Origin: Calothrix sp. NIES-4105
GTDB taxonomy: Bacteria; Cyanobacteriota; Cyanobacteriia; Cyanobacteriales; Nostocaceae
Length of the DNA stretch: 64,000 nt
NCBI RefSeq assembly: GCF_002368415.1
Contig: NZ_AP018290.1
Coordinates: 3,919,614-3,983,613 of the forward strand
Direction: 5' to 3'
Shown piece after piece: positions 4,863 to 44,565 of the stretch (within the stretch, counting starts at the first letter, position 1; each line of letters opens with the position of its first letter). A program made the translations under genes and the position numbers. The notes below the pieces were generated by a model that saw only the letters and a list, made by a program, of their open reading frames with translations, made no database searches and was not told where the DNA came from.

Positions 4863-5075
4863 TAGAGGTAAAATCGAATCAATGTACCAAATTTATAATA
4901 ATTATGCCCACGATTACCTGACCAAATATTGCAAATTCCGACTATTTTTTGCAATATCGCTCAGAATCTCTCTTTCGACAGAGCTGGGGCAATTCGTGAC
5001 TTTAGCGAGAAATATTTTTAGCCAGTAAGTTCATCTTCCCGCGTATATAATTGTGATAATCAATATCGCAATGTA

Positions 5076-6107
5076 CTAGTTTTTGCTTTTAAGACGCGAC
5101 ATATTAGCTACTGCAATAAGGATAAGGATGGCACCACCCCACTGCGACACTGTTAGTCGTTCACCTAAAAATAGATAAGCTCCACCTACTCCAAAGACGG
5201 GAATGAGTGTCAGGAACAGCGATGCTAAATTCGCTTGCATTCCTCTAAGTGCAATTAGGTATAACCAAAAGGATAGTGCATACTGAACTATGCCAGAAGC
5301 AATTGCTAATCCCCATGTCAATAAAGATACAGACGGTAGCGTTGTTCTACCGTTAATAAGCAGTTCAACGAACCAAAGTCCCAATGCCCAAAGCAAACCA
5401 AGTGAATGTTGGAGTGCTATTAGTACTAATGGAGAAAGGTTGGCAACAAATCGTCGCGTCAACACAACATACAATGCAGCGCAGAAACTGCCAAGAAAAA
5501 TCAACAAGTCACCTGCAAGTGAGCTATAGTCCGTGATAGCGCGCGTACCAAGAACTAACACAACCCCTGTAGTTGCCAAACCCATTAGTACAGTTAATGT
5601 TTGGCTAATTCGCTCACGCAGTAATATCCATGCTCCAATAGTAATTAGAATCGGCTCGATGGCGCCAATAATTAGTGATGCTCTGGTCGCAGTTGTAAAT
5701 TTTAACCCAACCAACGTTAATGTATATGTGAGTCCTGGTTCCAAAAATCCAGTTAAACTAACTCTTAGCGTTTTCCATGTTAATGGAACGCTTAATCGTT
5801 GTATTGCTACGGCGCCCCATAAAACTGTAACACTTGCAGCTAGTTGAACGACTTGGAGCGTAAGCGGAGGTAGAAACTGTATTACTCCCTCGCTCATAAC
5901 CGTGCCAATTCCCCAACTAGCAGACGCTAACACACCTGATACAATAGACACTAAGTGTATTGGATTTTTAGTTTTACTACCTTCACTAATTGGGGAGACA
6001 AGTAATTTGCTCGGTTTTTTACTATTATTTTCAAAATTTTTCGTATCCATATAGGCTAATTCTTCAAAATCAATTAGTTGTAATCGTTCCTTAGTTCGCA
6101 ATGCCAA
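5076..6107 (-). CDS. EamA/DMT-family membrane transporter
   Basis: 343 residues, mostly hydrophobic, with about ten transmembrane segments arranged as two EamA repeats (first around residues 55-185, second around 200-335). Landmarks are GIGTVMSEGVIQFLPPLTLQ in the first half and LIPVFGVGGAYLFLGERLT in the second, the latter typical of the drug/metabolite transporter superfamily. Members export small molecules such as amino acids or drugs across the inner membrane; the substrate here is unknown. An ATG at 6050 (residue 20) could be the real start, since the first twenty residues are polar and poorly conserved-looking; no Shine-Dalgarno decides it. An exporter inside an oxidoreductase cluster is consistent with removal of a toxic or processed compound. 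Confidence 0.87.
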   Translation of the reverse strand: MALRTKERLQLIDFEELAYMDTKNFENNSKKPSKLLVSPISEGSKTKNPIHLVSIVSGVLASASWGIGTVMSEGVIQFLPPLTLQVVQLAASVTVLWGAVAIQRLSVPLTWKTLRVSLTGFLEPGLTYTLTLVGLKFTTATRASLIIGAIEPILITIGAWILLRERISQTLTVLMGLATTGVVLVLGTRAITDYSSLAGDLLIFLGSFCAALYVVLTRRFVANLSPLVLIALQHSLGLLWALGLWFVELLINGRTTLPSVSLLTWGLAIASGIVQYALSFWLYLIALRGMQANLASLFLTLIPVFGVGGAYLFLGERLTVSQWGGAILILIAVANMSRLKSKN

Positions 6108-6196
6108 GGTCTAACGAGTGGGGAGGAGACAAGAAAAAATTGAATTCTTTCTCCTCATCACTTAATAGAACGCGCTCCATCGTTGTTGTAATGTCT

Positions 6197-6586
6197 TTAA
6201 GCAGCTTGCGGCAAATTACCTGATGCCCAATTTACCGAAGCCGAAGCGCGTCGGTTAACTTCATCCGCATCCCAATCAGGTTTTGCGTCTCCCAGTTCAC
6301 CTTTGTAAAATACGTAGAGTTTGTTGTCTGTGACTTTGTAATTGTTGGGGTCAATAGAATAGGTGTACCCTTCTGAAACTGCTGTTGCACAAAATCCACC
6401 ATATTGAGGAAGATATTGCTGTGGTTCAACTTCAAAACGAGCTTTGTTCTCAAAAGAAGCAAAGTAGTAAGTTCCACCTTCGTACATAACGGAAATAAAT
6501 GGATTACCCTTTGTTGGTTCACCTGTAAAATAAGACACTGGGTCGTAGCCTTCTAAAGCAACACCTTGTGCGTTTGTATTCAACAT
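6197..6586 (-). CDS. YHS-domain protein
   Basis: 129 residues from ATG 6586, which is preceded by GAGGA at seven bases and is therefore preferred over the longer frame starting at 6643. The sequence has the YHS pattern: GYDPVSYFTG, then YYFASFENKARFEVEPQQYLPQYGGFCA with its conserved Phe, Pro, Tyr, Gly, Cys residues. YHS domains occur in metal-binding proteins and in small stand-alone proteins of unknown role. There is no signal peptide. It sits between the DMT transporter and an SDR gene, all on the minus strand, but spacing (about 90 bp each side) leaves the operon question open. Confidence 0.85.
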   Translation of the reverse strand: MLNTNAQGVALEGYDPVSYFTGEPTKGNPFISVMYEGGTYYFASFENKARFEVEPQQYLPQYGGFCATAVSEGYTYSIDPNNYKVTDNKLYVFYKGELGDAKPDWDADEVNRRASASVNWASGNLPQAA

Positions 6587-6690
6587 AAAAAATTCCTCGT
6601 GCTTGAAATAAATGAATTGTTTTTGTGTGCTAACCAATGCCAAATATTTTGTATAAAATAAAGTGGAATTAACTGGCTATTTGACTAGAT

Positions 6691-7428
6691 TTACTGAGGC
6701 AGCATTCCAGCAAACTGTTTCTCAACCGCTTTTGAGTCCTGACGAATACCTGCAAATACTTGCTGCGATACTGGGTCTGGATATACATCTTCAATGCCTT
6801 GCTCTAAAGCTTCTAACACAGCAGAGGCTATCTGAATGGGACTAACTTTGTCTAAGGGAACACCTTCTGACATTGCAGTATCTACGGGGCCAGGGAAGAC
6901 ACCTACTACTAATGTTCCTTGTTGTGCTAATTGCGCGCGGACTCCTTGAGTAAGCGAGTAAAGGGCAGCTTTGGAAGCGCTATAGGAAGCAAAGACTGGT
7001 ACATTCACCACAGACGAAACAGAAAGCAGGTTAACAATTGCGCCACCTCCATTACGCTCTAAAATTGGTGCAAAAGCGCGAATCATGTACAGCGTACCGA
7101 AATAGTTGGTTTCCATTTCCCAATGCGCTGTTTCCAAGCTATTGTCCGCAAAAAATCCACCACTTCCCAATACACCAGCATTGTTAATCAGTAAATTAAC
7201 GTCTTGTGCTTGTTGAACAATAGCAGCTATTTGGTCGGGTTTAGTGACATCAAGCGCGATTGGAATAATTCTGTGTGGGTCAATTGCAACTAAATCTGTA
7301 AGAGAATCGATACTGCGCGCGGCTGCATATATACGTTCGGTGCCTGCGCTGTACAATGCTTCGACAAATGCTTTACCGATACCGCGATTGGCGCCAGTTA
7401 CAAGGGCAACAGTTGGGTTAATCTTCAT
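6691..7428 (-). CDS. SDR oxidoreductase
   Basis: 245 residues from ATG 7428, chosen because AAGGAG lies seven bases upstream; a longer frame starts at 7452. Motifs: TGANRGIGKAF for NAD(P), DVTKPDQ, NNAGVLG, catalytic serine in LLSVSSV and YSASK, then VFPGPVDT. It is a short cytosolic carbonyl reductase type, with a C terminus (QDSKAVEKQFAGMLPQ) resembling SDRs of the YdfG/retinol dehydrogenase-like group. Its upstream region (7429-7572) carries a palindromic operator and flanking sequence nearly identical to the LysR/peroxiredoxin intergenic region at 11.7 kb, so both promoters are probably under the same LysR regulator. Confidence 0.88.
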   Translation of the reverse strand: MKINPTVALVTGANRGIGKAFVEALYSAGTERIYAAARSIDSLTDLVAIDPHRIIPIALDVTKPDQIAAIVQQAQDVNLLINNAGVLGSGGFFADNSLETAHWEMETNYFGTLYMIRAFAPILERNGGGAIVNLLSVSSVVNVPVFASYSASKAALYSLTQGVRAQLAQQGTLVVGVFPGPVDTAMSEGVPLDKVSPIQIASAVLEALEQGIEDVYPDPVSQQVFAGIRQDSKAVEKQFAGMLPQ

Positions 7429-7549
7429 ATCAATCTCCTTCATAATCATCAAACTTGTTTTTTTTGTTTTGCGGTGGTTTCCTGTCCGCTTCTATATAAA
7501 CATCATGATTCATTCATTCAAGTTTGAGAAGACGGTAAATTAGAATATG

Positions 7550-7572
7550 ATTTATTCCAATTTAGAATAAAT
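7550..7572. promoter_or_regulatory. Candidate LysR operator, copy 1
   Basis: ATTTATTC, a seven-base spacer and GAATAAAT form a perfect 8-bp inverted repeat. The same box with one mismatch occurs at 11715-11737 beside a LysR gene. The flanking bases also match between the two loci over roughly 7497-7572 and 11657-11737 (shared TCATGATT, GAGAAGAC, TAGAATAT). It is upstream of the SDR gene at 6691-7428. Confidence 0.6.
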
Positions 7573-7634
7573 ATTTGTAGGAAAGCGAGTTTCTGGTTCT
7601 AGTAATGCATAAGTCCTGTAAAGAAATTGCTCCT

Positions 7635-8753
7635 TCATGCTGCTTGATAACTTTGATTTGCCTCTAAGAATGGATAGTCAATATATCCCTTCTCGGTACC
7701 CCCATAAAAAGTAGAGCGGTCGTAAGGGTTAAGTGGGGCATTGAGAGCAAAGCGTTGCGGCAAGTCGGGATTGGCAATGTAGAGCCTGCCATAGGCTATT
7801 AAATCTGCACTGTCATAAAGCAGAGTTTTTTCGCCTGTTTCGCGGTTGTGTCCACCTGCCGAGATAATTGTACCGCTGTAGATTGAACGGAAATATTGAG
7901 TAGAAAGTCCTGTGCCGTCGTCTTCAACATCAGTGTTGCCTTGAACACGGGGTTCAACTATGTGCAGGTATGCAAGATTAAAGCGGTTGAGTTCCTTAAC
8001 AACATAACTATATAGTGCTTTTGGGTCAGAATCGTGCATACTGGCGAATTTGCCACTTGGTGAGAGACGCACACCAACGCGCTTGCTTCCCCATACACTA
8101 ATTGCTGCTTCCACAACTTCCATTAGAAATCGGGCGCGGTTTTCAATCGATCCCCCGTATCTATCCGCGCGCTTGTTGGAACCATCGTGGAGAAATTGGT
8201 CGAGTAAGTAACCGTTGGCACTGTGAATTTCAATACCATCAAATCCTGCTGCCATTGAGTTTTGTGCTGCTATGCGATAATCTTCCACAATCGCTGGAAT
8301 TTCTTGAGTTTCCAAAGCGCGCGGGGTGACGAAGGGTTGCGCTCCACTATAAGTTAAAGCATTTCCTTCAGGTGCAATTGCTGAAGGGGCAACAGGCAAG
8401 GCACCATTTGGTTGTAAAGACGGATGAGAAATCCGCCCTACGTGCCACAGTTGCTGGAAGATGTGCCCATTGTTCTCATGCACCGTGTTTGTAATTAGCT
8501 TCCAACCTTCTATTTGCTCTGGTGAGTGAATGCCTGGAGTGTTAGGATAGCCCAAACCTTGAGCAGAAATTTGTGTGGCTTCGGTGATAATCAATCCAGC
8601 AGATACTCGCTGTTTGTAGTACTCAGCATTCATCGGTTGCGGTACATTGCCTGTTGCTGCTCGGTTGCGGGTAAGCGGCGCCATCACAATTCGGTTTTTG
8701 AGAGTGTAGGCACCTAATTGATAAGGTTGCAACAGTTTCAAATCGTTACTCAT
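7635..8753 (-). CDS. Old Yellow Enzyme family alkene reductase
   Basis: 372 residues, normal for the family. It starts LLQPYQLGAYTLKNRIVMAP, followed by LTRNRA and EYYKQR, typical of FMN-binding N-ethylmaleimide reductase-like enzymes. Active-site pair is seen as IHSANGYLLDQF (His and Asn), then DRYGGSIENRARF. The enzyme binds FMN in a TIM barrel and uses NADPH to reduce activated carbon-carbon double bonds (enones, maleimides) and some nitro compounds. AGGAGAT lies seven bases before ATG 8753. It is downstream of an SDR on the same strand and has a paralogue at 52275-53369. Confidence 0.93.
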   Translation of the reverse strand: MSNDLKLLQPYQLGAYTLKNRIVMAPLTRNRAATGNVPQPMNAEYYKQRVSAGLIITEATQISAQGLGYPNTPGIHSPEQIEGWKLITNTVHENNGHIFQQLWHVGRISHPSLQPNGALPVAPSAIAPEGNALTYSGAQPFVTPRALETQEIPAIVEDYRIAAQNSMAAGFDGIEIHSANGYLLDQFLHDGSNKRADRYGGSIENRARFLMEVVEAAISVWGSKRVGVRLSPSGKFASMHDSDPKALYSYVVKELNRFNLAYLHIVEPRVQGNTDVEDDGTGLSTQYFRSIYSGTIISAGGHNRETGEKTLLYDSADLIAYGRLYIANPDLPQRFALNAPLNPYDRSTFYGGTEKGYIDYPFLEANQSYQAA

Positions 8754-14742: not shown

Positions 14743-15825
14743 TTAAAAAGTGACGACTATTTTTCCCATTTGCTCGTTTGATTCCATATAACCTAAAGCT
14801 GACACGACCTCCTCAAACGTAAATTCTTTGGCAATTACAGGCTTCAATATTCCATTGCGAACGCCGTCGTAAAGATAATTAATGCCCCGCTCAAACCGTT
14901 CGGGATTGCTGAATACTTCGTAATTTGAGTAACCGCGAATATTTAGTTCTTTTGCCATTAAAGTCCATAAGGGAGTTATTGTTGGTTCTTTTGCCAGTGC
15001 CCCATAGATAAAAATTTGAGCGCCTTGAGCAGCAACGTTGGTAATTGCCTCAAGTCCAGAACCAGCCACTGAATCAAACGCAAGGCGAACACCTTTACCA
15101 TTTGTGATTTCTTTTACCCGACTCACTACGTCTTCTTCGCTGGTTACAATCACATAATCTGCACCTGCATCAAGCAAAGCTTGTTTTTTCGCTGAGTTAC
15201 GAGTTGTTGCGATCGCAGTAGCTCCAGTTGCGTGAATAATTTGCAAAGCTGCCACACCAACGCTACTGCTGGCTGCGGTGAGAAGTACATAATCACCCTG
15301 AGACATTTGACCATAATCGATTAGGGCGCCCCAAGAGGTTAGAAATGGTGTCAGCAGGGCAGATGCTTCTGCGGGGGTCAGTTGATTTGGGTAGGGAATA
15401 ACAAATGAGGCGGGCAAAATCGTTGTTTCACCGAGAACTCCGTGCTGACTAAGGTTAAAGCCTGCTAGCGTTAGGACATTATCACCAACTTTTATAGGTT
15501 TTCGATTCGGTCCTTGGTCGCGGTGAAACGCTGGTTGATGACTGACATCTGGTAGCTCTTGTAATTCAAGTCCAACGGCTTCTACAATTGCTGCCGCATC
15601 TACTCCCAATCGAGCCGGAAATTCGGGGCTTTGTAAGTAATTGCCTTCGCGGAAGATAGCATCGCTGCGGTTCAAGGCAACAGCTTGAATCCGCAAGCGG
15701 ACTTCACCAGCACCCGGTTCAGCAATTGCTACTTCTTCAGTTTTAAGGACTTCGATACCACCAGTTTGATAAAAACGAACTACTTTGTTAGTTTTGGCTT
15801 CTCTTGTAATCATAGTTGTTCTCAT
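14743..15825 (-). CDS. Zinc-independent MDR alcohol dehydrogenase/quinone reductase
   Basis: 360 residues, or 356 from the alternative ATG 15813; neither has a clear Shine-Dalgarno. GroES-like N-terminal domain (VVRFYQTGGIEVLKTEEV, RLGVDAAAIVEAVG), then the Rossmann part with TAASSSVGVAALQI, ATTRNSAKKQALLDAGADYVI and EITNGKGVRLAFDSVAG. The zinc-ligand cysteines of classic alcohol dehydrogenases are not apparent. These NADPH-dependent enzymes reduce quinones or activated alkenes. A close paralogue is at 34230-35243. Its upstream region contains a segment homologous to the promoter at 24.8 kb. Confidence 0.9.
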   Translation of the reverse strand: MRTTMITREAKTNKVVRFYQTGGIEVLKTEEVAIAEPGAGEVRLRIQAVALNRSDAIFREGNYLQSPEFPARLGVDAAAIVEAVGLELQELPDVSHQPAFHRDQGPNRKPIKVGDNVLTLAGFNLSQHGVLGETTILPASFVIPYPNQLTPAEASALLTPFLTSWGALIDYGQMSQGDYVLLTAASSSVGVAALQIIHATGATAIATTRNSAKKQALLDAGADYVIVTSEEDVVSRVKEITNGKGVRLAFDSVAGSGLEAITNVAAQGAQIFIYGALAKEPTITPLWTLMAKELNIRGYSNYEVFSNPERFERGINYLYDGVRNGILKPVIAKEFTFEEVVSALGYMESNEQMGKIVVTF

Positions 15826-16202
15826 GCGGGCTTATCTTGATCAGGTTAAAGCGCTTTATCAGTTGCAATTAAATCTAGACAAATCTAAGTAATTCTCACT
15901 AAATAAAATAAATATTAGTTTTTCTATAATGAGCATTAAGTATTATTTTATACTTATTTATTTTAATTATCTATGAAAGTAAAGGTGACTAAAAGGCACG
16001 CTCATTATCTCGTCCCATATGATAGTACGCAACAATTCTACACAAACCAAAGTCAAAAGACAAACCAATTTAATTTAATTAGTATATTTTTATGTATTTT
16101 GAGGAGAAAAGATAAAAATATTATTAAACATCACATAATTGCTACCATTAGTGCTATTATATATTAAAGAATCGAGCGTTCATTACATATTGGGCGATAA
16201 TT
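15826..16202. other. Intergenic region with promoter-like duplicated segment
   Basis: 377 AT-rich bases without a convincing gene. Bases 15849-15923 align with 24814-24890 upstream of another oxidoreductase gene (shared AAGCGCTT-ATCAGTTG, AATTAAAT, then ATTAGTTTTT/ACTAGTTTTT), so they are probably a copied promoter. The rest must contain the promoter of the TnpB-like gene at 16203 and possibly the left end of its element, but no terminal repeat is visible. Confidence 0.5.
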
Positions 16203-17840
16203 ATGAGTAATCCCCAAAAAACAAAAAAGACTAAAAAGACTGCATCACAAATAAAAAAGGCTGCAAACCAAGTTCAAAGGCTCCTGATATTATCAGGGTT
16301 ATATTTAGATGTTTGGTTTGTCATCAAAATAGAAGCAGCTTTAAAGGTTGAGACTACAATCATCAACCCAGTAGTAGAGTGTAGTGATATAGATATAATT
16401 AATGTTCTGATTGATTCACTTTATACAGTTCGTGCTAACACATATAATGTACTTGGTTCTTCATCCTTTTGGAATCATGGATGGATGGGGACACAAAATA
16501 TTGTATCTGCAAAACATGGAAAGCCAGAAACTATACTGGTTAATGGTTTACCAATGCCTGCTAAAATTTTTGAATGGACAGTGCAAGATACAGCCAAGAA
16601 TATATTAATGCAGCAAGAAGCAGCTAAAATAAAGATTATAAGCCGTATTTGTAAACGCATACCCAAACATACAGGCGCTGAATTAACTAAACAGCAGATT
16701 GCAGAAAATTATGTTGCGGATAAACAGCGCAAAAAAGCCTTTGACGCATTAAAGTCATTTGAGACAATCAAGACTATACCTTGGTTACATCGTTACTTCC
16801 GCATGGAATATAAACGTGGTCGATGCAACCAAAATAGACAAATCGTGTATCAACAACAAGCATATACCTGTAAGCGTATCTCACGTTATTTCGTGAAGCT
16901 AGAAGTTCAAGGATTAGAACGTGGTAAGCGAATTACTTTAATAGTTAAATCAAATCGTATTATCAAAGGGCAAATTAGATTAATCCGCTCCGAAAATGGT
17001 AGTTTAGAGATACACCATCTAGAAACTTTATATAATCGTGACTACTGCGAACTAATAAATCGTCAGCCAGAAATAGGTTTAGACCGTGGTTACACAGAGG
17101 TTTTCTACACATCCAATAATCAAGCGTTAGGAACTGACTTCGGCGCCCAATTGAATAAAAAAACTGATAGAATTACAAATATTGGACGCAACAGAAGTAA
17201 ATTATGGTCTTTAGCTTACGTCCGTTATAAAAATAATCCCCAAAAGGCGCAACGCATAATAGAAAATAATCTAGGCAATAAAACAGAATTAAGGCGCCGC
17301 ATCAAGGATGACGCTTACATAAATACTGTCGTTAACACTGCTTGTAAGACCGCTACAAAACAAGCTACAACAGTTCATGTTGAAAGTTTGATTGAACAAA
17401 TTCGTTCTAATCACAAATTATCTAGACGAGCTAAAAATCGTTTGGAGAAGTGGGAGAAAGGTACAGTTAAGGATAGACTTACCCACTGGTCACTACGCAA
17501 CAACACCAATCTTAACTGGGTGAATGGTGCGTACACGTCGCAAATTGACCACCGTAATGGTACGCTGTTGGGTACTAGAAACGGTGACAATTTTACTACG
17601 TATGATCGGGTCGTGTTCCACAGTGACCACAATGCTGCAATGAATGTACTACATCGTGGTTTGGACACGGAAATCACGCGGTTTATGAAGTACACAGAAG
17701 TTCAAGCAGTATTATTGCGTAGAACCGCGCTTTTCTTGAGTGCTATGGGTCTGACATTGCTTGACGCAATTAATCTCGGTTGGTTGGATGTTAAGCATAA
17801 AAAGTGTCAGGCATTTAAGGAAATCCTACACGGGTTGTAG
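16203..17840 (+). CDS. Stand-alone TnpB-like RuvC nuclease with degenerate zinc ribbon
   Basis: 545 residues, longer than typical TnpB (about 400). The C-terminal half carries a split RuvC domain: first motif IGLDRGYTEVFYTS (Asp), second motif ATTVHVESLIEQI (Glu), third motif VVFHSDHNAAMNVLHRG (Asp). The segment between motifs II and III keeps the TnpB landmark NGAYTSQ, but the positions where TnpB has CxxC pairs hold no cysteines (QIDHRNGTLLGTRNGD). A lysine-rich N terminus precedes about 250 residues of unrecognised sequence. No tnpA-like gene is nearby. By family it is expected to be an RNA-guided DNA nuclease of a transposon; whether this clade is still a transposon protein or has been repurposed cannot be told. 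It contains two GGCGCC sites, suggesting long residence. Confidence 0.75.
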   Translation: MSNPQKTKKTKKTASQIKKAANQVQRLLILSGLYLDVWFVIKIEAALKVETTIINPVVECSDIDIINVLIDSLYTVRANTYNVLGSSSFWNHGWMGTQNIVSAKHGKPETILVNGLPMPAKIFEWTVQDTAKNILMQQEAAKIKIISRICKRIPKHTGAELTKQQIAENYVADKQRKKAFDALKSFETIKTIPWLHRYFRMEYKRGRCNQNRQIVYQQQAYTCKRISRYFVKLEVQGLERGKRITLIVKSNRIIKGQIRLIRSENGSLEIHHLETLYNRDYCELINRQPEIGLDRGYTEVFYTSNNQALGTDFGAQLNKKTDRITNIGRNRSKLWSLAYVRYKNNPQKAQRIIENNLGNKTELRRRIKDDAYINTVVNTACKTATKQATTVHVESLIEQIRSNHKLSRRAKNRLEKWEKGTVKDRLTHWSLRNNTNLNWVNGAYTSQIDHRNGTLLGTRNGDNFTTYDRVVFHSDHNAAMNVLHRGLDTEITRFMKYTEVQAVLLRRTALFLSAMGLTLLDAINLGWLDVKHKKCQAFKEILHGL

Positions 17841-18070
17841 GAACGTCTAGTAACGGACCGAAGGGAGGATTAACCCATCCACAATTGTAATGTTCCAACA
17901 TATGACATTACGCGATACCTTGCCGACACAGACAGCAATTTAAGGGTGAGTAAGGTTGCTCGTCCTGACACAAATCTTACATCTAGCTGGCTTGTCCAGA
18001 TTTAAGTAGATTTAGTGAACCCGGTGTTGAATGCAACCCTATAATCTGAGAGTAAGCCGTGCCAACTATT
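17824..18070 (+). ncRNA. Candidate guide (omega) RNA region downstream of the TnpB-like gene
   Basis: TnpB-type nucleases use an RNA made from the 3' end of their gene and the adjacent element end. Here a perfect 7-bp stem (TCCTACA/TGTAGGA, 17824-17842) spans the stop codon, followed by GGAT-TAACCC-ATCC, TGTT-CC-AACA near 17892, and GTTG-AATG-CAAC near 18026. No gene is present. The RNA itself, its 3' end and the guide position are inferred, not visible. Confidence 0.35.
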
Positions 18071-18184
18071 TACACAATCGATTATTTATATATCTATTAT
18101 CCACGGTATAGATGTTACTGCTGTGATTATGCCAATAAACGCAAATTAATTGCCTTTTATATACATGGTTAGTAAATCAAGATT

Positions 18185-18778
18185 TTATGAGCTTATAGCT
18201 ACCATCACGAGGTCAACTAACTTGTTGACAAAATCTACATCAAGCGAAGCATGACCTACTAGCAAACGGTAGTAAAGTGGCCCATACAAAGCGTCTAAGA
18301 CAACATCAAGGTCGATATCGGGCTGGAGTTCCCCGCACGCAATACCTCGCTTTAAAATTTGCTTGGCTTCAGTACGACGTGCAGCTAAATAGCGCTCCCG
18401 GAAGGCAACAGCAAGTTCTTCGTCAACTTGTCCTTGTGCAATTAAAGCTGCGATAGTGCGTCCGGTTTGGCTAGTAAACAAATTAAGCACCGTATGCATC
18501 TGAGTGCGAAAGTCTTCCTTGACAGAACCCGTATCTGGAAACGGAATATTAGGCGCCGTAGCAGCAAGAAAGCCATCCATAACAACAGCAGATTTTGAAG
18601 ACCACCAACGATAGATAGTAGCTTTGCTAACTCCTGCTTTGGCAGCAATCGCTTCTACAGTTAAAGCTGCAAAGCCATCTTCTCTTAGTAAATCATTCGC
18701 CGCTTGCAAAATTGCATGGTGAGCGGCTTCGCTACGAGGGCGCCCTGAAGAACGAGGGGTATCATTAGATTTAAACAT
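18185..18778 (-). CDS. TetR-family transcriptional repressor
   Basis: 197 residues from ATG 18778, which has AGGAGG five bases upstream; the frame is open to 18829. N-terminal DNA-binding domain: AAHHAILQAANDLLREDGFA, LTVEAIAAKAGVSKATIYRW. The C-terminal ligand domain ends about residue 195. TetR proteins repress their own and adjacent genes until a small ligand binds. It is divergent from an NmrA-like gene; the intervening 150 bp hold the operator-like sequence at 18851-18871, other copies of which occur at 24776, 27463 and 36831. It is therefore the likely regulator of several units in this island. Confidence 0.92.
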   Translation of the reverse strand: MFKSNDTPRSSGRPRSEAAHHAILQAANDLLREDGFAALTVEAIAAKAGVSKATIYRWWSSKSAVVMDGFLAATAPNIPFPDTGSVKEDFRTQMHTVLNLFTSQTGRTIAALIAQGQVDEELAVAFRERYLAARRTEAKQILKRGIACGELQPDIDLDVVLDALYGPLYYRLLVGHASLDVDFVNKLVDLVMVAISS

Positions 18779-18850
18779 TTTTCCTCCTTTTGAAGTATAT
18801 AGGTTATTCATTTTGGAAGATACAATCATCCACTTGGCTTATGTTTAATA

Positions 18851-18871
18851 TACTAAACGTTCATTTTCGTA
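18851..18871 (+). promoter_or_regulatory. Candidate TetR operator, copy A
   Basis: TACTAAACGTTCATTTTCGT followed by A; the outer parts are inverted (TACnAAA...TTTnGTA). It lies between the divergent TetR and NmrA-like genes. The identical 21 bp occurs at 24776-24796, and near copies at 27463-27483 and 36831-36851. The last has the cleanest symmetry, TACGAAA...TTTCGTA. Confidence 0.65.
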
Positions 18872-18931
18872 ATTATTAAATACAGTCTAGATAATAAGTT
18901 TAAAGTTTACACACTTTCCAAGGTATTGTTT

Positions 18932-24691: not shown

Positions 24692-24800
24692 CAGTTTTCT
24701 ATATATTTCCTACTTTGGAAGTATATTAGGCTATTTATTTTGGCAGATACAATCATCACCTGCCTTGTTTGAAAATACTAAACGTTCATTTTCGTAATTC
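24692..24800 (+). promoter_or_regulatory. Duplicated TetR promoter module, copy B
   Basis: This segment is nearly identical to 27378-27487 and homologous to 18783-18875: TATATTTCCTACTTTGGAAG, then TTATTTTGGCAGATACAATC, then the operator TACTAAACGTTCATTTTCGT at 24776-24795. At 18.8 kb the first part is the 5' end of the tetR gene read backwards, so copies B and C carry a tetR stub plus the operator. Copy B lies 125 bp upstream of the Rossmann protein gene at 24921 and probably puts it under the TetR protein's control. Confidence 0.7.
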
Positions 24801-24920
24801 TGAAAATGAATATAAGCGCTTAATCAGTTGAAATTAAATTTAGCTAAATTTCAACAATTCCGAGCAAAGAATGCTAAATACTAGTTTTTATTCCATTGTC
24901 ATAAATATCTAGAGGTAAGT

Positions 24921-27377: not shown

Positions 27378-27487
27378 GTAGTTTTGTATATATTTCCTAC
27401 TTTGGAAGTATATTAGGCTATTTATTGTGGCAGATACAGTCATGACGTGTCTTATTTTAATATACTAGACGTTCATTTTCGTAATTA
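27378..27487 (+). promoter_or_regulatory. Duplicated TetR promoter module, copy C (orphan)
   Basis: Almost identical to 24692-24800, including the tetR stub (TATATTTCCTACTTTGGAAG) and the operator TACTAGACGTTCATTTTCGT at 27463-27482. No plus-strand gene follows: the next 60 bp lead into a decayed tnpB in the opposite direction. The gene this promoter once served seems to have been lost or displaced. Confidence 0.65.
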
Positions 27488-27548
27488 TCGAAAGAATATA
27501 AAAATAAGAGCAAAATAGCTTCACAAGTGCAAGTATTAGCAAAATTGG

Positions 27549-28280
27549 TTAATCGCGTTTACTGAAATGATTCAACTTAACCCAAGTGCTTTTTAAGTCT
27601 ATATCTACCGCGCAAATGCGTTTGGATTTCTGGGCTTTAACGCCTCCTGTTGCTAGATGATATCTTTGAAGTGTCCAGTTTATCCAACAATTTCCATTCG
27701 CTTTTACAACAATTGTGGGACATGCTTTTTACCAATCATCTGAATAATTGTATGCTGAATATGAAAACTTGACCCAACACCAATTATTGTTTTTACGAAT
27801 TTTAAGTATAACGGTTGAACCGTCATCATCTTTAAACATACTATATTTATAGTACGTTGGAGAATCTTTTACCTCTGTTGGTAATACTGGTGGCTTATAT
27901 GGTTTATGAGGTACACCTTTTTTGAAAGCTGCGTCTACACGCTTCTCCTCTTTTTTCAACCAATTGTAGTAATTTTTACGCCATGATTTGTAATGACCAC
28001 AAGCTGTAGTGATTACATCCCATCGCAAATCTCTCGGCATATCCGAATAAATAAAAGGATATTTATTATTTACACCTAATGTCAATTCTTCATAATACGA
28101 CCTCATTTTATCTACAGCGAAATCGACCGCTGTTGAATCAGTATTAATTACCTGAATATAGAAAGCAATGCTTTCTCTGTAAACAGATAATGTCTCTGAT
28201 AAGTCTATATTGTCTCGATGAAGTTTTGCTTTCAGTGTTTTTGTTTCAATTCGATATCCTTTCTTTTTCGCGAGTGTCAT
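27549..28280 (-). pseudogene. tnpB: Decayed TnpB-like transposase, N-terminal half
   Basis: The first frame (28280 to 27729, 183 residues) looks like the N-terminal and beta-barrel part of an OrfB/TnpB protein: a long helical start, a DLRWDVITTACGHYKSW helix and VILKIRKNNNWCWVKFSYS. After its stop, a second frame continues downstream (about 27719 to 27549) with PTIVVKANGNCWINWTLQ and the first RuvC motif ICAVDIDLKSTWVKL, then stops. The remaining RuvC motifs are missing. So this is a frameshifted and truncated tnpB. It lies next to the orphan TetR module and may have removed the gene served by it. No GGCGCC site occurs inside. Confidence 0.75.
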
Positions 28281-36675: not shown

Positions 36676-37251
36676 TTACAACGCCGCCGCCTTAACTATT
36701 TGCAATTCCATTGTTGGATAATACTTTTGTGTGGTGGCAAGTGGGAAGAAGCAACTTATTTAATATAAAAATACTTCCTAGTATCCACAACATGAATTTT
36801 ATTGCTACCTTAGTTGTTAATGTTTTAATATACGAAACGTCATTTTTCGTAATAAAAGAAAAATTTGTGAAATTGACGCTATGCGTGTAGGCGCCACTGA
36901 TGTACGCGGTAGTATTATTGAAAACTGCGGGCAATGGCGCCATAAACCAGTTTTATTACTCGCGATAGTAGCAGATAACATTACAACTATGCTCTCTATA
37001 ATAGAAATATTATCTTAAAGTTAGGCATGGTAGGAGAGCAAACCTCATTAATAGTTAATGAAGCTAAGAGGAAAAGCCATTCCTCACAAATCAAACCTTA
37101 CTTAAAAACACTGTCCAGTAGTAAGGAAGCATGAAATGGAATTGTTGTAGAACACGTTTTAAATAAAAGATACTGCTATGATAATTTGATAAATTTACAT
37201 ATTTAAATTATCCTAAGTAATACGAGGTAATGATGAATAACCATCGAAATC
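36676..37251. other. Intergenic region with a fourth TetR box and possible gene remnant
   Basis: 576 bp. It contains the TetR operator copy D (36831-36851) and, 30 bp later, a short frame (36881-37018, starting MRVGATDVRGSII) that may be a decayed NmrA-type start placed after the box as in the module at 18.9 kb. The rest shows no gene. The promoter of the AraC gene must be near its right end. Confidence 0.4.
36831..36851 (+). promoter_or_regulatory. Candidate TetR operator, copy D
   Basis: TACGAAACGTCATTTTTCGT followed by A, with a perfect 7-bp inverted repeat TACGAAA/TTTCGTA. It matches the operators at 18851, 24776 and 27463. The flanks are only weakly similar to the other modules. Confidence 0.55.
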
Positions 37252-42503: not shown

Positions 42504-44060
42504 CTAAGAAGTTCTGCCGTATTTCTTAGTTATCCGATTGTCGGGCGAGTGATACACAGTTGTGTCAAAAAGACTCAACTGCTCACCACTCGTCCCAAAG
42601 GCATGGTTGCTGGACACAACTCCATCGGTTGTTCTCTTCACAGCCGTAACTTTCGCGCAGTCCGCACGTAGGGTTTTTTCATTTTTTGGGAAAACCAATC
42701 CCGCTTTTTTGGCAATTGTTCTGCTGGCTTTCGTGTCGGCGTGGTCGGTATGACCGCAATTTGTACACAAAAACTTTTCACCTTCACGGTTTGCTTTATC
42801 AATGTGTCCGCACGTTGGACATTCCTGGCTGGTGTGTTTGGGATTAACAGCAATTACATGTTTCCCTGCCTTCAAAGCAAGCCAAGCAATTTTATTGTAA
42901 ATATCTCCCCAACCACAATCTAAGATTACTTTATTTAATCCTGATTTTGCGGAAGCCCCATTATGAGTGTATCCGCCTTTTCCGTCATGTTTTGGTTTAG
43001 CGCGTTTGACCATGTTCTTAATTTTGAGGTCTTCGCGTACCACAACATCGGCAGTTTTTACTATATCATTAGCTACTTTCCAATTGCGACCATTTCTTGA
43101 TGCTGCAATTTTATGCTTGGTTCTAGCTAATTTTATTACAGCTTTTTTTCTATTCTTTGAACCTTTAACCTTACGAGCAATACTGCGCTGACGCATTGCC
43201 AAACGGCGTGCTGTTTTCTTGTTTGTCGCTGGTTTTGTATTGAGAGCAAAGCTACCATCTGAGAATGCTATTAGCTTATTAACTCCTACATCAATCCCTA
43301 CCACCGACTTAACTTTTTCAAACGGGAGAAGCTCTTGAATTAAATCAGGTATTTCTACAATGATGGAAATAAACCAGTAGGAAGATTCCTTCGATACTGT
43401 GACGCTTCTAATATCTGCAACTGAGCCAAATTCTTTTTGACGGCTATTATGAAACTTTACGTTACCAATCCCAGGAAGATAGGCTGTAGCGTAATTTTTA
43501 TTAGTTAGTTCAATCTTGGCTTGACCTGGTTTATATTCAAACGAATCAAGTCGAGCCACATAGCTTGGATAACCACGTCCGTGCTTAAAGAAGTTGGTGT
43601 AAGCGTCGTCAAGTCTTTCTAGATTACCTTGCAATACAGCAGAATATATTTCTCCAAAATATGGCGACTTACCGCGTAATTCCGTAGTTACTTTTTTCTG
43701 TATACCGCTTGCGTCATCCCATTTAACGACGCTTGGTTTTAACAGCTTACCCGTTTTAATATCAAATTTTTCCTTTGTCTTTTTAAACGCAATAGACAGC
43801 TTTTCTGGAACTACACCATGTTTAAGAACTGGACAAGTTAAAGGACAACATGCACCATATTCTATCCGTGATTCCAAGTCACAATAACTCCCAAATGCGT
43901 AGACTATTTCCTCTACTACATCTTGATTATTTGTACTATATCCTATCTCTCTTTCACGTAGTGCATAGTTACGATGTTTTCTAAGCGTAACTAACCAACG
44001 CTCCATTGTTTCAACGTGCCCAATATTAGGTTTTAACTTAAAGTTCCATCTCACCTGCAC
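42504..44060 (-). CDS. tnpB: TnpB, RNA-guided nuclease of the IS605 element
   Basis: 518 residues from GTG 44060, which has AAGGAGGTGAT just upstream. RuvC motifs: [18 protein letters not shown] (Asp), [12 protein letters not shown] (Glu), and [15 protein letters not shown] (Asp). The zinc ribbon is intact: [20 protein letters not shown] then NCGHTD. The N-terminal half has the usual OrfB helical and beta-barrel parts. TnpB uses an RNA from the element's right end to cut the donor or target site and helps keep the element. All catalytic residues are present, so it is probably active. Confidence 0.93.
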
Positions 44061-44169
44061 TACTTATCACCTCCTTAATCTTTAATTAATTTATTGACTT
44101 GATTGTTGACTAGTATACAATAGCTGTAAACAATTAATCAATATCTTTTTGTAAAAAATATGGCAAAAT

Positions 44170-44565
44170 TTGACAAGTAATGAATACCGTCATGAAGGTA
44201 ACGCAGTGTGCTTGCTCAACTACCACTTTGTTTGGATACCGAAGCGTAGAAAGAAAGTATTGGTAGGGGACATAGCTCACAGGCTGCAAAAAATTATTGC
44301 TGCTGTATGTACCGAAAACAGGTGGAAGATTATAGCAATGGAAATCATGCCCGACCACGTACACCTGTTTTTAAACGTTCGAGTTATAGATGCTCCAGCA
44401 GATATTATGAGAAAGATTAAGGGACGTGCATCGCATCATCTAAGACAAGAATTTCCAGAGTTGCTTAAAATTCCAACTTTATGGACACCTAGCTACTTTG
44501 TTTCTACTGCTGGTAACGTTGCTACAGAAACTGTAAAGAATTACATAGCCAATCAGAGAAGTTAA
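44170..44565 (+). CDS. tnpA: TnpA, Y1 HUH transposase of the IS605 element
   Basis: 131 residues from TTG 44170. The HUH motif is PDHVHLFLNV; the catalytic tyrosine is in TVKNYIANQ near the C terminus; NYHFVWIPKRRKKVL and WTPSYFVSTAGNV are typical of the IS200/IS605 TnpA. It cuts and rejoins single-stranded element ends at hairpins during replication. Full length for the family. It is divergent from tnpB with 109 bp between the starts. Confidence 0.93.
   Translation: MTSNEYRHEGNAVCLLNYHFVWIPKRRKKVLVGDIAHRLQKIIAAVCTENRWKIIAMEIMPDHVHLFLNVRVIDAPADIMRKIKGRASHHLRQEFPELLKIPTLWTPSYFVSTAGNVATETVKNYIANQRS

What the first reader, a model, noticed from the sequence alone, without database searches (positions are those of the whole stretch)
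16203..18070. Stand-alone TnpB-like nuclease with lost zinc ribbon and structured downstream region
The 545-residue protein keeps the three RuvC acidic motifs (LDRG, HVES, HSDHNAA) and the TnpB landmark before the third motif, but has no cysteines where TnpB carries its CxxC pairs, and has about 250 unrecognised N-terminal residues. No tnpA is nearby. Several short stem-loops lie from the stop codon to about 18070, where TnpB guide RNAs arise. It could be a transposon-free RNA-guided nuclease clade, possibly captured by the host. The RuvC motifs and missing cysteines are seen; the RNA and role are inferred.
Basis: partly seen in the sequence, partly recalled or inferred. Interest (0 to 1): 0.75.

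Follow-up and report, generated by a model that had tools for sequence, protein, structure and literature searches.

The report
Zinc-less TnpB in tnpA-less IS607-type element
A cyanobacterial jumping gene that has lost its own transposase still carries an RNA-guided DNA-cutting protein and its guide RNA, and the protein belongs to a branch of this enzyme family that has dropped the zinc-binding knob the family normally has.

Summary
The protein observation holds: a 545-aa TnpB relative with all three RuvC acidic residues and no zinc-ribbon cysteines. The reading "transposon-free, captured by the host" does not. The gene sits inside a mobile element bordered by CG at 15852-15853 and 18022-18023. 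Six other copies or fragments share its left and/or right end with different immediate flanks. A 250-bp tnpB-less derivative in a sister species has empty sites in two others, showing a 2-bp CG crossover. Both ends carry phased AAATCTA repeats, inverted, as in IS607 elements; related elements carry the IS607 serine transposase. The downstream RNA is supported: 13 of 54 pairs change on both sides (shuffled mean 5.6), and its covariance model finds the same RNA at the tnpB 3' end in 25 of 53 other loci searched, 0 of 27 controls. So this is a tnpA-less IS607-type element coding a guide RNA and a probably active TnpB. The unusual part is family-wide: 33 of 35 relatives with that stretch lack the four cysteines, while D-E-D is invariant in 30 of 30 aligned. 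RNA production, cleavage and TAM are inferred; no partner transposase was found in this genome; structure prediction could not be run.

The parts
15852..18023 (+). whole tnpA-less mobile element, CG to CG (2170 bp counting one CG)
   Evidence: left and right ends shared with copies in G003 and G005, and by eye G024 on the left (right end also G002, G018), with different immediate flanks; 2-bp CG border read from the empty sites of the G003:C6 derivative
15850..15853 (+). AGCG at the left border: CG is the crossover dinucleotide; the preceding AG is host sequence and, with CG, the predicted target motif / TAM (inferred)
   Evidence: AG precedes CG in 5 of 5 copies that have a left end, G024's read by eye; AG already present in the empty sites of G004 and G006 and in the related site in G003:C8
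15871..15887 (+). left-end phased repeat AAATCTANNNAAATCTA (putative transposase-binding motif)
   Evidence: 0 mismatches; with the right-end copy the only two matches in 64 kb at one mismatch, expected 0.07
16203..17840 (+). tnpB: RuvC nuclease with D294/E394/D475, zinc ribbon replaced by TSQIDHRNGTLLGTRNGDNF
17819..18023 (+). predicted guide RNA scaffold (reRNA), overlapping the end of tnpB
   Evidence: RNAalifold and pair counts, 13 of 54 pairs changed on both sides; covariance model R1 finds it beside distant relatives
17824..17842 (+). hairpin TCCTACA-CGGGT-TGTAGGA across the tnpB stop codon
   Evidence: alignment columns 6-24, all 7 pairs formed in 5 of 5 sequences
17943..17966 (+). strongest covarying stem of the RNA (8 pairs, 5 with changes on both sides)
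   Evidence: helix 7
17997..18013 (-). right-end phased repeat, inverted relative to the left end
   Evidence: 1 mismatch
18024..18043 (+). predicted guide sequence (host DNA next to the right border); its first base may belong to the scaffold
   Evidence: position inferred from the border; two other places in the genome match, each with 3 mismatches

Best explanation
This is a non-autonomous, tnpB-only element derived from the IS607 (serine-recombinase) group. Shown: it has defined ends with inverted phased repeats, a 2-bp CG crossover (read from a derivative of the same clade), copies with other immediate flanks, and relatives with an IS607 serine TnpA and similar ends. Shown: it codes a TnpB of a family that largely lost the zinc ribbon but keeps the RuvC D-E-D, and a covarying RNA region that ends at the right border. 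Inferred: TnpB binds that RNA, whose 3' extension into flanking host DNA (from 18024) is the guide; the complex cuts the empty donor or allelic site that carries host AGCG (TAM) plus the guide match, so that repair from the occupied copy restores the element. Inferred: movement is by a TnpA acting in trans, now absent or unrecognised in this genome.
For: Borders: in G003:C6 a 250-bp derivative joins window 15850-15892 to 17817-18024 (95% and 91% identity); its site is empty in G004 (ATCAGCAG-CG-GAACTC) and G006 (ATCAGTAG-CG-GAACTC), and only CG is shared by both junctions. Ends: AAATCTANNNAAATCTA occurs exactly twice in 64 kb at one mismatch, one per end, inverted (expected 0.07); the tnpA-bearing relatives L126 (right end) and L127 (left end) carry it in the same orientation as here, L125 at the right end in the other orientation. 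Family: serine TnpA directly upstream in 15 of 59 scorable tree rows, labels interleaved (12 changes; shuffled mean 13.5, 87 of 500 shuffles as low) as expected if tnpA is lost repeatedly; no Y1 TnpA beside any of the family loci (loci up to L150). RNA: 13 of 54 pairs changed on both sides, 0 of 500 shuffles reach it, slid structures give 1-3; model R1 matches 27 of 54 sources at E up to 1, of which 25 are neither the training window nor the tnpB-less L081, all on the tnpB strand at its 3' end; 0 of 27 controls. Protein: D-E-D invariant in 30 of 30; family profile hits Cas12f/TnpB structures, best E 1.4e-9; dN/dS about 0.14 against the G005 copy.
Against: None of the 13 IS607 transposase loci over the cut-off in the own genome shows the AAATCTA repeat within 1.5 kb, so no current partner was found. 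The core is CG, not the GG reported for IS607 (PMC4058570, PMC6188088, passages). A neighbouring tnpB-only group (L075, L076, L077, L012, L064, L025) has left ends GCGGTT and right ends ACCCC for which I could not read a common dinucleotide. At one mismatch the repeat is missing from the close copies L058-L061 and from tnpA-bearing L124, L128, L129, L011 and L141. No remnant of tnpA was found in the 350 bp before tnpB. No site spanning both flanks of the window copy was found in 6 sister species. The G005 and G003:C55 insertions lie in contigs that share other stretches, so these two are not from wholly unrelated neighbourhoods, though the insertion points differ. 27 of 54 sources, family loci all but few, gave no R1 match. 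No expression or cleavage data; the fold was not modelled.
Confidence: 0.82

Rival explanations
1. Host-captured, transposon-free RNA-guided nuclease.
For: No tnpA nearby; coding sequence under purifying selection (dN/dS about 0.14); only two copies of this close clade seen intact (window and G005).
Against: Defined ends, other copies with different immediate flanks, a tnpB-less derivative with empty sites; the clade groups with tnpA-bearing relatives; several copies are broken or fragments (G024 with one TGA, G003:C55 deleted, G002 and G006 fragments), which looks like turnover of a selfish element.
Confidence: 0.05
2. Decaying relic: the zinc ribbon was lost because the protein no longer works.
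For: This copy has no identifiable transposase; several related copies are fragments.
Against: The ribbon is replaced by a conserved motif (TSQxDS..GTLLGxRxGDxF) across most of the family; D-E-D invariant in 30 of 30; dN/dS about 0.14; RNA pairs kept by compensatory change.
Confidence: 0.1
3. The element persists chiefly by TnpB-guided break repair (homing) and no longer needs a TnpA at all.
For: No tnpA was detected in 44 of 59 scorable rows, and no partner TnpA was found in the own genome.
Against: Precise CG-to-CG insertion at a new site is what a serine transposase does, not what homing does; a partner may sit elsewhere or have been lost.
Confidence: 0.15
4. A nuclease-dead, repressor-type TnpB derivative (TldR-like, recalled).
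For: Stand-alone tnpB with a guide-like RNA.
Against: All three catalytic acidic residues are present here and invariant in 30 of 30 aligned relatives.
Confidence: 0.03

Closest known systems
IS607-family insertion sequences (serine TnpA + TnpB)
   Same: inverted, about 10-bp-phased subterminal repeats, a 2-bp crossover shared by ends and target, TnpB with guide-RNA region at the right end; relatives in this family carry a serine TnpA
   Different: this copy has no tnpA; the crossover is CG rather than GG (PMC4058570 and PMC6188088, passages read)
tnpB-only elements (IS1341, IS809, IS1136 as named in PMC3627910, passages read)
   Same: TnpB is the only protein of the element
   Different: here the parent type is identifiable as IS607-like from ends and relatives
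ISDra2 TnpB and Cas12f (structures)
   Same: RuvC D-E-D and a TNB-like segment between RuvC motifs II and III
   Different: the TNB CCCC zinc finger described for ISDra2 TnpB (PMC10097598, passages read) is absent
RAGATH-18-guided IS607 TnpBs (PMC11061315) and ISXfa1 / cyanobacterial pro-Fanzor TnpBs (PMC10711439), passages read
   Same: IS607 association and guide RNA at the right end; ISXfa1 reRNA extends beyond the border
   Different: no Rfam match to this RNA; RuvC-I is DRG/DKG rather than the DPG of pro-Fanzors, and the second acidic residue aligns with the E-D-L of the window's canonical TnpB

Membership tests
TnpB | RuvC D-E-D triad in three motifs | tested here: met
   D294, E394, D475, invariant in 30 of 30; profile matches Cas12f/TnpB structures
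TnpB | C4 zinc ribbon before RuvC-III, called strictly conserved in PMC3627910 | tested here: not met
   no cysteine in residues 444-480; absent in 33 of 35 relatives with that stretch
TnpB | TNB domain homology | tested here: inconclusive
   window protein 19.3 bits, below the Pfam cut-off 26.3; 30 of 30 family members match at E up to 0.01, best 1.9e-15
TnpB | guide RNA from the tnpB 3' end to the element's right end | tested here: met
   covariation and model search for a conserved RNA region; transcription itself not tested
TnpB | RNA-guided DNA cleavage next to a TAM | not testable with these tools
   needs a bench assay
IS607-family element | serine TnpA in the element | tested here: not met
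   none in this copy; present directly upstream in 15 of 59 scorable relatives
IS607-family element | inverted, helically phased subterminal repeats | tested here: met
   compared with the description in PMC6188088
IS607-family element | 2-bp crossover dinucleotide shared by ends and target, no longer duplication | tested here: met
   CG, from the G003:C6 derivative and its empty sites; not shown at the window's own site
IS607-family element | GG as that dinucleotide | tested here: not met
   CG
IS200/IS605 | Y1 TnpA in the element | tested here: not met
   no Y1 TnpA beside any family locus searched with the window's own Y1 TnpA
TldR-type repressor | inactivated RuvC | tested here: not met
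   D-E-D intact; the definition is recalled

The most novel reading that the evidence does not exclude
A lineage of active IS607-type TnpB nucleases works without the TNB zinc ribbon, using a new family of guide RNA, and spawns guide-only mobile derivatives (left end plus complete guide RNA, as in G003:C6) that bring new guides to a TnpB acting in trans. Against the last step: no intact close-clade tnpB was found in G003 itself.
Probability: 0.3. Interest if true: 0.65.

Novelty: new variant of a known kind. Interest (0 to 1): 0.45.

Why it matters
The zinc ribbon of TnpB has been described as a strictly conserved landmark. A family that keeps the catalytic centre and a covarying guide-RNA region but mostly not the ribbon would be a natural test of what that knob does in TnpB and Cas12 enzymes. 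The mapped borders, an empty site and a predicted TAM and guide make the system directly testable.

Tried and rejected
Single-sequence folding of the downstream region is not significant by itself. Rfam gave nothing up to E 5 in 15700-18200. PHROGs and PADLOC gave nothing at E up to 0.01. A PDB search with the single protein gave only weak hits (E 0.35 and 1.4); the family profile was needed. BLASTP against the window's canonical TnpB gave nothing; profile comparison gave 92.8% probability. GG (15844-15845 and 18023-18024) as the crossover was considered and rejected by the empty sites. I tried to read the dinucleotide of the L070, L064/L025 and L075 groups from copies and empty-site homologues and could not settle it; further partial matches to the flanks listed were not examined. 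I looked for tnpA remnants before tnpB: nothing below E 0.35. I looked for the window's own empty site in 6 sister species: no place spans both flanks. Whether the zinc ribbon was lost once or several times is left open: L028, L034 and by eye L162 hold four cysteines inside the tree, but the root is drawn at the midpoint and long branches meet.

Full report
The observation. The 545-residue ORF at 16203-17840 is real. Sequence libraries barely see it: Pfam's TNB model scores 19.3 bits against a cut-off of 26.3, and NCBIfam gives nothing over a cut-off. A profile of 30 family members matches Cas12f, TnpB and other Cas12 structures (17 distinct sequences at E up to 0.1, best 1.4e-9), and 30 of 30 match the TNB model at E up to 0.01.

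It is inside a mobile element. The own genome holds 12 matches to the protein at 11 loci, itself included. Among 100 relatives 16 genomes have a match at 1e-10, and among 388 genomes of the order 16 have one at 1e-60. Six other close copies or fragments align with the window at the right end, the left end or both, and then stop: G005 (L058), G024 (L059, one TGA; its left end read by eye), G003:C55 (L060, internally deleted), G002 (L061, 3' fragment), the tnpB-less 250-bp copy at G003:C6 (L052) and a right end in G018 (L081). A further internal fragment lies in G006. Immediate flanks differ. One qualification: the contigs of the G005 and G003:C55 copies share other stretches, so these two sit in partly related neighbourhoods at different insertion points.

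Exact borders. The G003:C6 derivative joins window 15850-15892 directly to 17817-18024. Its unoccupied site is present in G004 and G006. Aligned to both junctions, the only bases shared by left and right junction are CG: host ...CAG-CG-GAACTC... became ...CAG-CG-CTTT......AACC-CG-GAACTC. By the same reading the window element runs from CG 15852-15853 to CG 18022-18023; its own empty site was not found. In the five copies with a left end the host bases before CG are AG in 5 of 5, and AG is there before insertion in both empty sites. A third site, the G003:C8 homologue of the G005 insertion site, also reads AGCG, though it has 39 extra bases nearby. I therefore predict AGCG as target motif and TAM; that is inference.

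Type of element. The phased repeat AAATCTANNNAAATCTA (one mismatch allowed) occurs twice in the 64-kb window, once at each end and inverted; 100 shuffles average 0.07. Literature passages describe inverted, about 10-bp phased 9-bp motifs near IS607-family ends and a crossover dinucleotide (PMC6188088, PMC4058570, passages read). Serine TnpA ORFs lie directly upstream of tnpB in 15 tree rows; 44 rows with at least 900 bases upstream have none detected; 6 rows had too little upstream sequence and one is the outgroup. Rows under 400 codons and near-duplicates were dropped; the tnpA-bearing copies L005 and L017 are represented there by truncated duplicates (L095, L107) and so are not counted. Presence and absence of tnpA interleave: 12 changes, shuffled mean 13.5, 87 of 500 shuffles as low, so tnpA has been lost often. 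The window clade groups with a set holding L011, L024, L124 and L141, which have TnpA (support 97/85). In the tnpA-bearing L126 and L127 the same repeat is found at one end in the orientation seen here; in L125 it is at the right end in the other orientation. Right ends read TAGGTTTAGTGTACCCC (L125, L126) and AGGTTTAGTTCACCCC (L127) against TAGATTTAGTGAACCCG here. No Y1 transposase accompanies the family loci. Against this: the own genome's 13 IS607 transposase loci over the cut-off show no such repeat, so no partner was found in this genome; the close copies L058-L061 show it only in altered form; and CG is not the reported GG.

The RNA. The right-end region 17819-18023 was aligned for five copies (window, G003:C6, G005, G002, G024). 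RNAalifold gives 54 pairs. Of these 13 have a change on both sides, shuffles average 5.6 (sd 1.7) and none of 500 reaches 13; sliding the partner by 1-3 columns gives 1-3; the count of further pair types is less clear (22 against 19.1, 49 of 500). The shuffle ignores relatedness and the structure was derived from the same rows, so these are supports, not probabilities. Independent support: a covariance model of these five rows (R1) was run over 54 sources. 27 matched at E up to 1: the window (a training row), L081 (right end without tnpB) and 25 family loci, E from 1e-12 to 0.034. In all 25 the match is on the tnpB strand with its start between 150 nt inside and 4 nt after the ORF's end (for L063, relative to the terminal one of its two tnpB pieces). 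The other 27 sources did not match, among them the L065/L066/L070 groups, L075, L077, L125 and L128. 27 control loci (18 recombinase loci of the own genome without this family, and 9 loci brought in as empty-site or flank homologues) gave 0. In 60 whole genomes it gave 9 matches in 6 genomes, 5 of them the training rows: 6 at tnpB copies or fragments of this family, 3 without family tnpB (G003:C6, G018:C38, G024:C1:4607075). Rfam has no match. The RNA's last stem overlaps the right-end repeat, so that DNA probably serves both transposase and guide RNA (inference).

The zinc ribbon. In most aligned relatives the ribbon is replaced by TSQxDS..GTLLGxRxGDxF of similar length. Of 38 relatives kept, one is the window again and two lack the stretch; of the other 35, two (L028, L034) keep CxxC...CxxC and 33 do not, a few with single cysteines left. 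A viral-contig relative, L162, also shows four cysteines by eye but lacks the third-motif aspartate. So the ribbon was probably lost within this family, once or more. D-E-D is invariant in the 30 of A1. Between the window and G005 copies dS is 1.19 and dN 0.17, i.e. selection keeps the protein. Published descriptions treat the C4 finger as strictly conserved (PMC3627910, passages) and show it in ISDra2 TnpB and SpuFz1 (PMC10097598, PMC10432273, passages). I found no paper describing a zinc-less TnpB clade in the listings; the library lacks many papers, and a 2023 classification of TnpB and Cas12 that I recall was not seen, so novelty of the loss is not established.

How it most likely works. 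Shown: mobile element, ends, crossover in a derivative, RNA conservation, catalytic residues, relatives with TnpA. Inferred: the tnpB 3' end is processed to a guide RNA whose guide starts at about 18024; the complex cuts AGCG-flanked matching DNA, i.e. the site left empty by excision, and repair restores the element; transposition needs a TnpA in trans. In the own genome the 20-base guide matches two other places, each with 3 mismatches, and none closer, as expected if self-cutting is avoided.

Verdict. A tnpA-less, IS607-derived TnpB element: a known kind of thing, with a variant nuclease. The captured-by-host reading is not supported. Structure prediction was asked for seven times and the machine was busy each time, so the fold claim rests on profile matches only.

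Noticed in passing
window 24814-24889: A 76-bp stretch 76% identical to the element's left end (15849-15923): a probable relic left end of the same family.
   Followed up: partly
window 18777-18880, 24703-24805, 27379-27488, short copy 36824-36853: Intergenic repeats of about 105 bp, 83-85% alike, one beside a TetR-family-like gene; possibly a shared regulatory site (the gene name is recalled).
   Followed up: no
window 42504-44565: A canonical IS200/IS605-type pair: TnpB with intact zinc ribbon (NCBIfam guided_TnpB 4.4e-64) and a TnpA taken as Y1-type from its sequence (recalled) on the other strand.
   Followed up: partly
window 27729-28280 (-): A 183-aa ORF with no Pfam or NCBIfam match up to E 1.
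   Followed up: no
L150 (G024:C1:4607075-4607228) and L081/L147 (G018:C38): Copies of the guide-RNA region in loci without family tnpB.
   Followed up: partly
L059 around 5016-7744: The G024 copy lies between a truncated acetyltransferase-like ORF and a small ORF that look like a toxin-antitoxin pair (names recalled).
   Followed up: no
L028, L034, L162: Relatives that keep four cysteines in the zinc-ribbon place, inside an otherwise zinc-less family.
   Followed up: partly
L086 6207-6827: In a Vibrio breoganii plasmid the IS607 TnpA and zinc-less TnpB genes are followed by a third, hypothetical gene.
   Followed up: no
G005:C33 and G003:C55 (L058, L060): Two copies of the element sit a few kb apart, at different points, in contigs that share other stretches; insertion hot spot or a rearranged shared region.
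   Followed up: no
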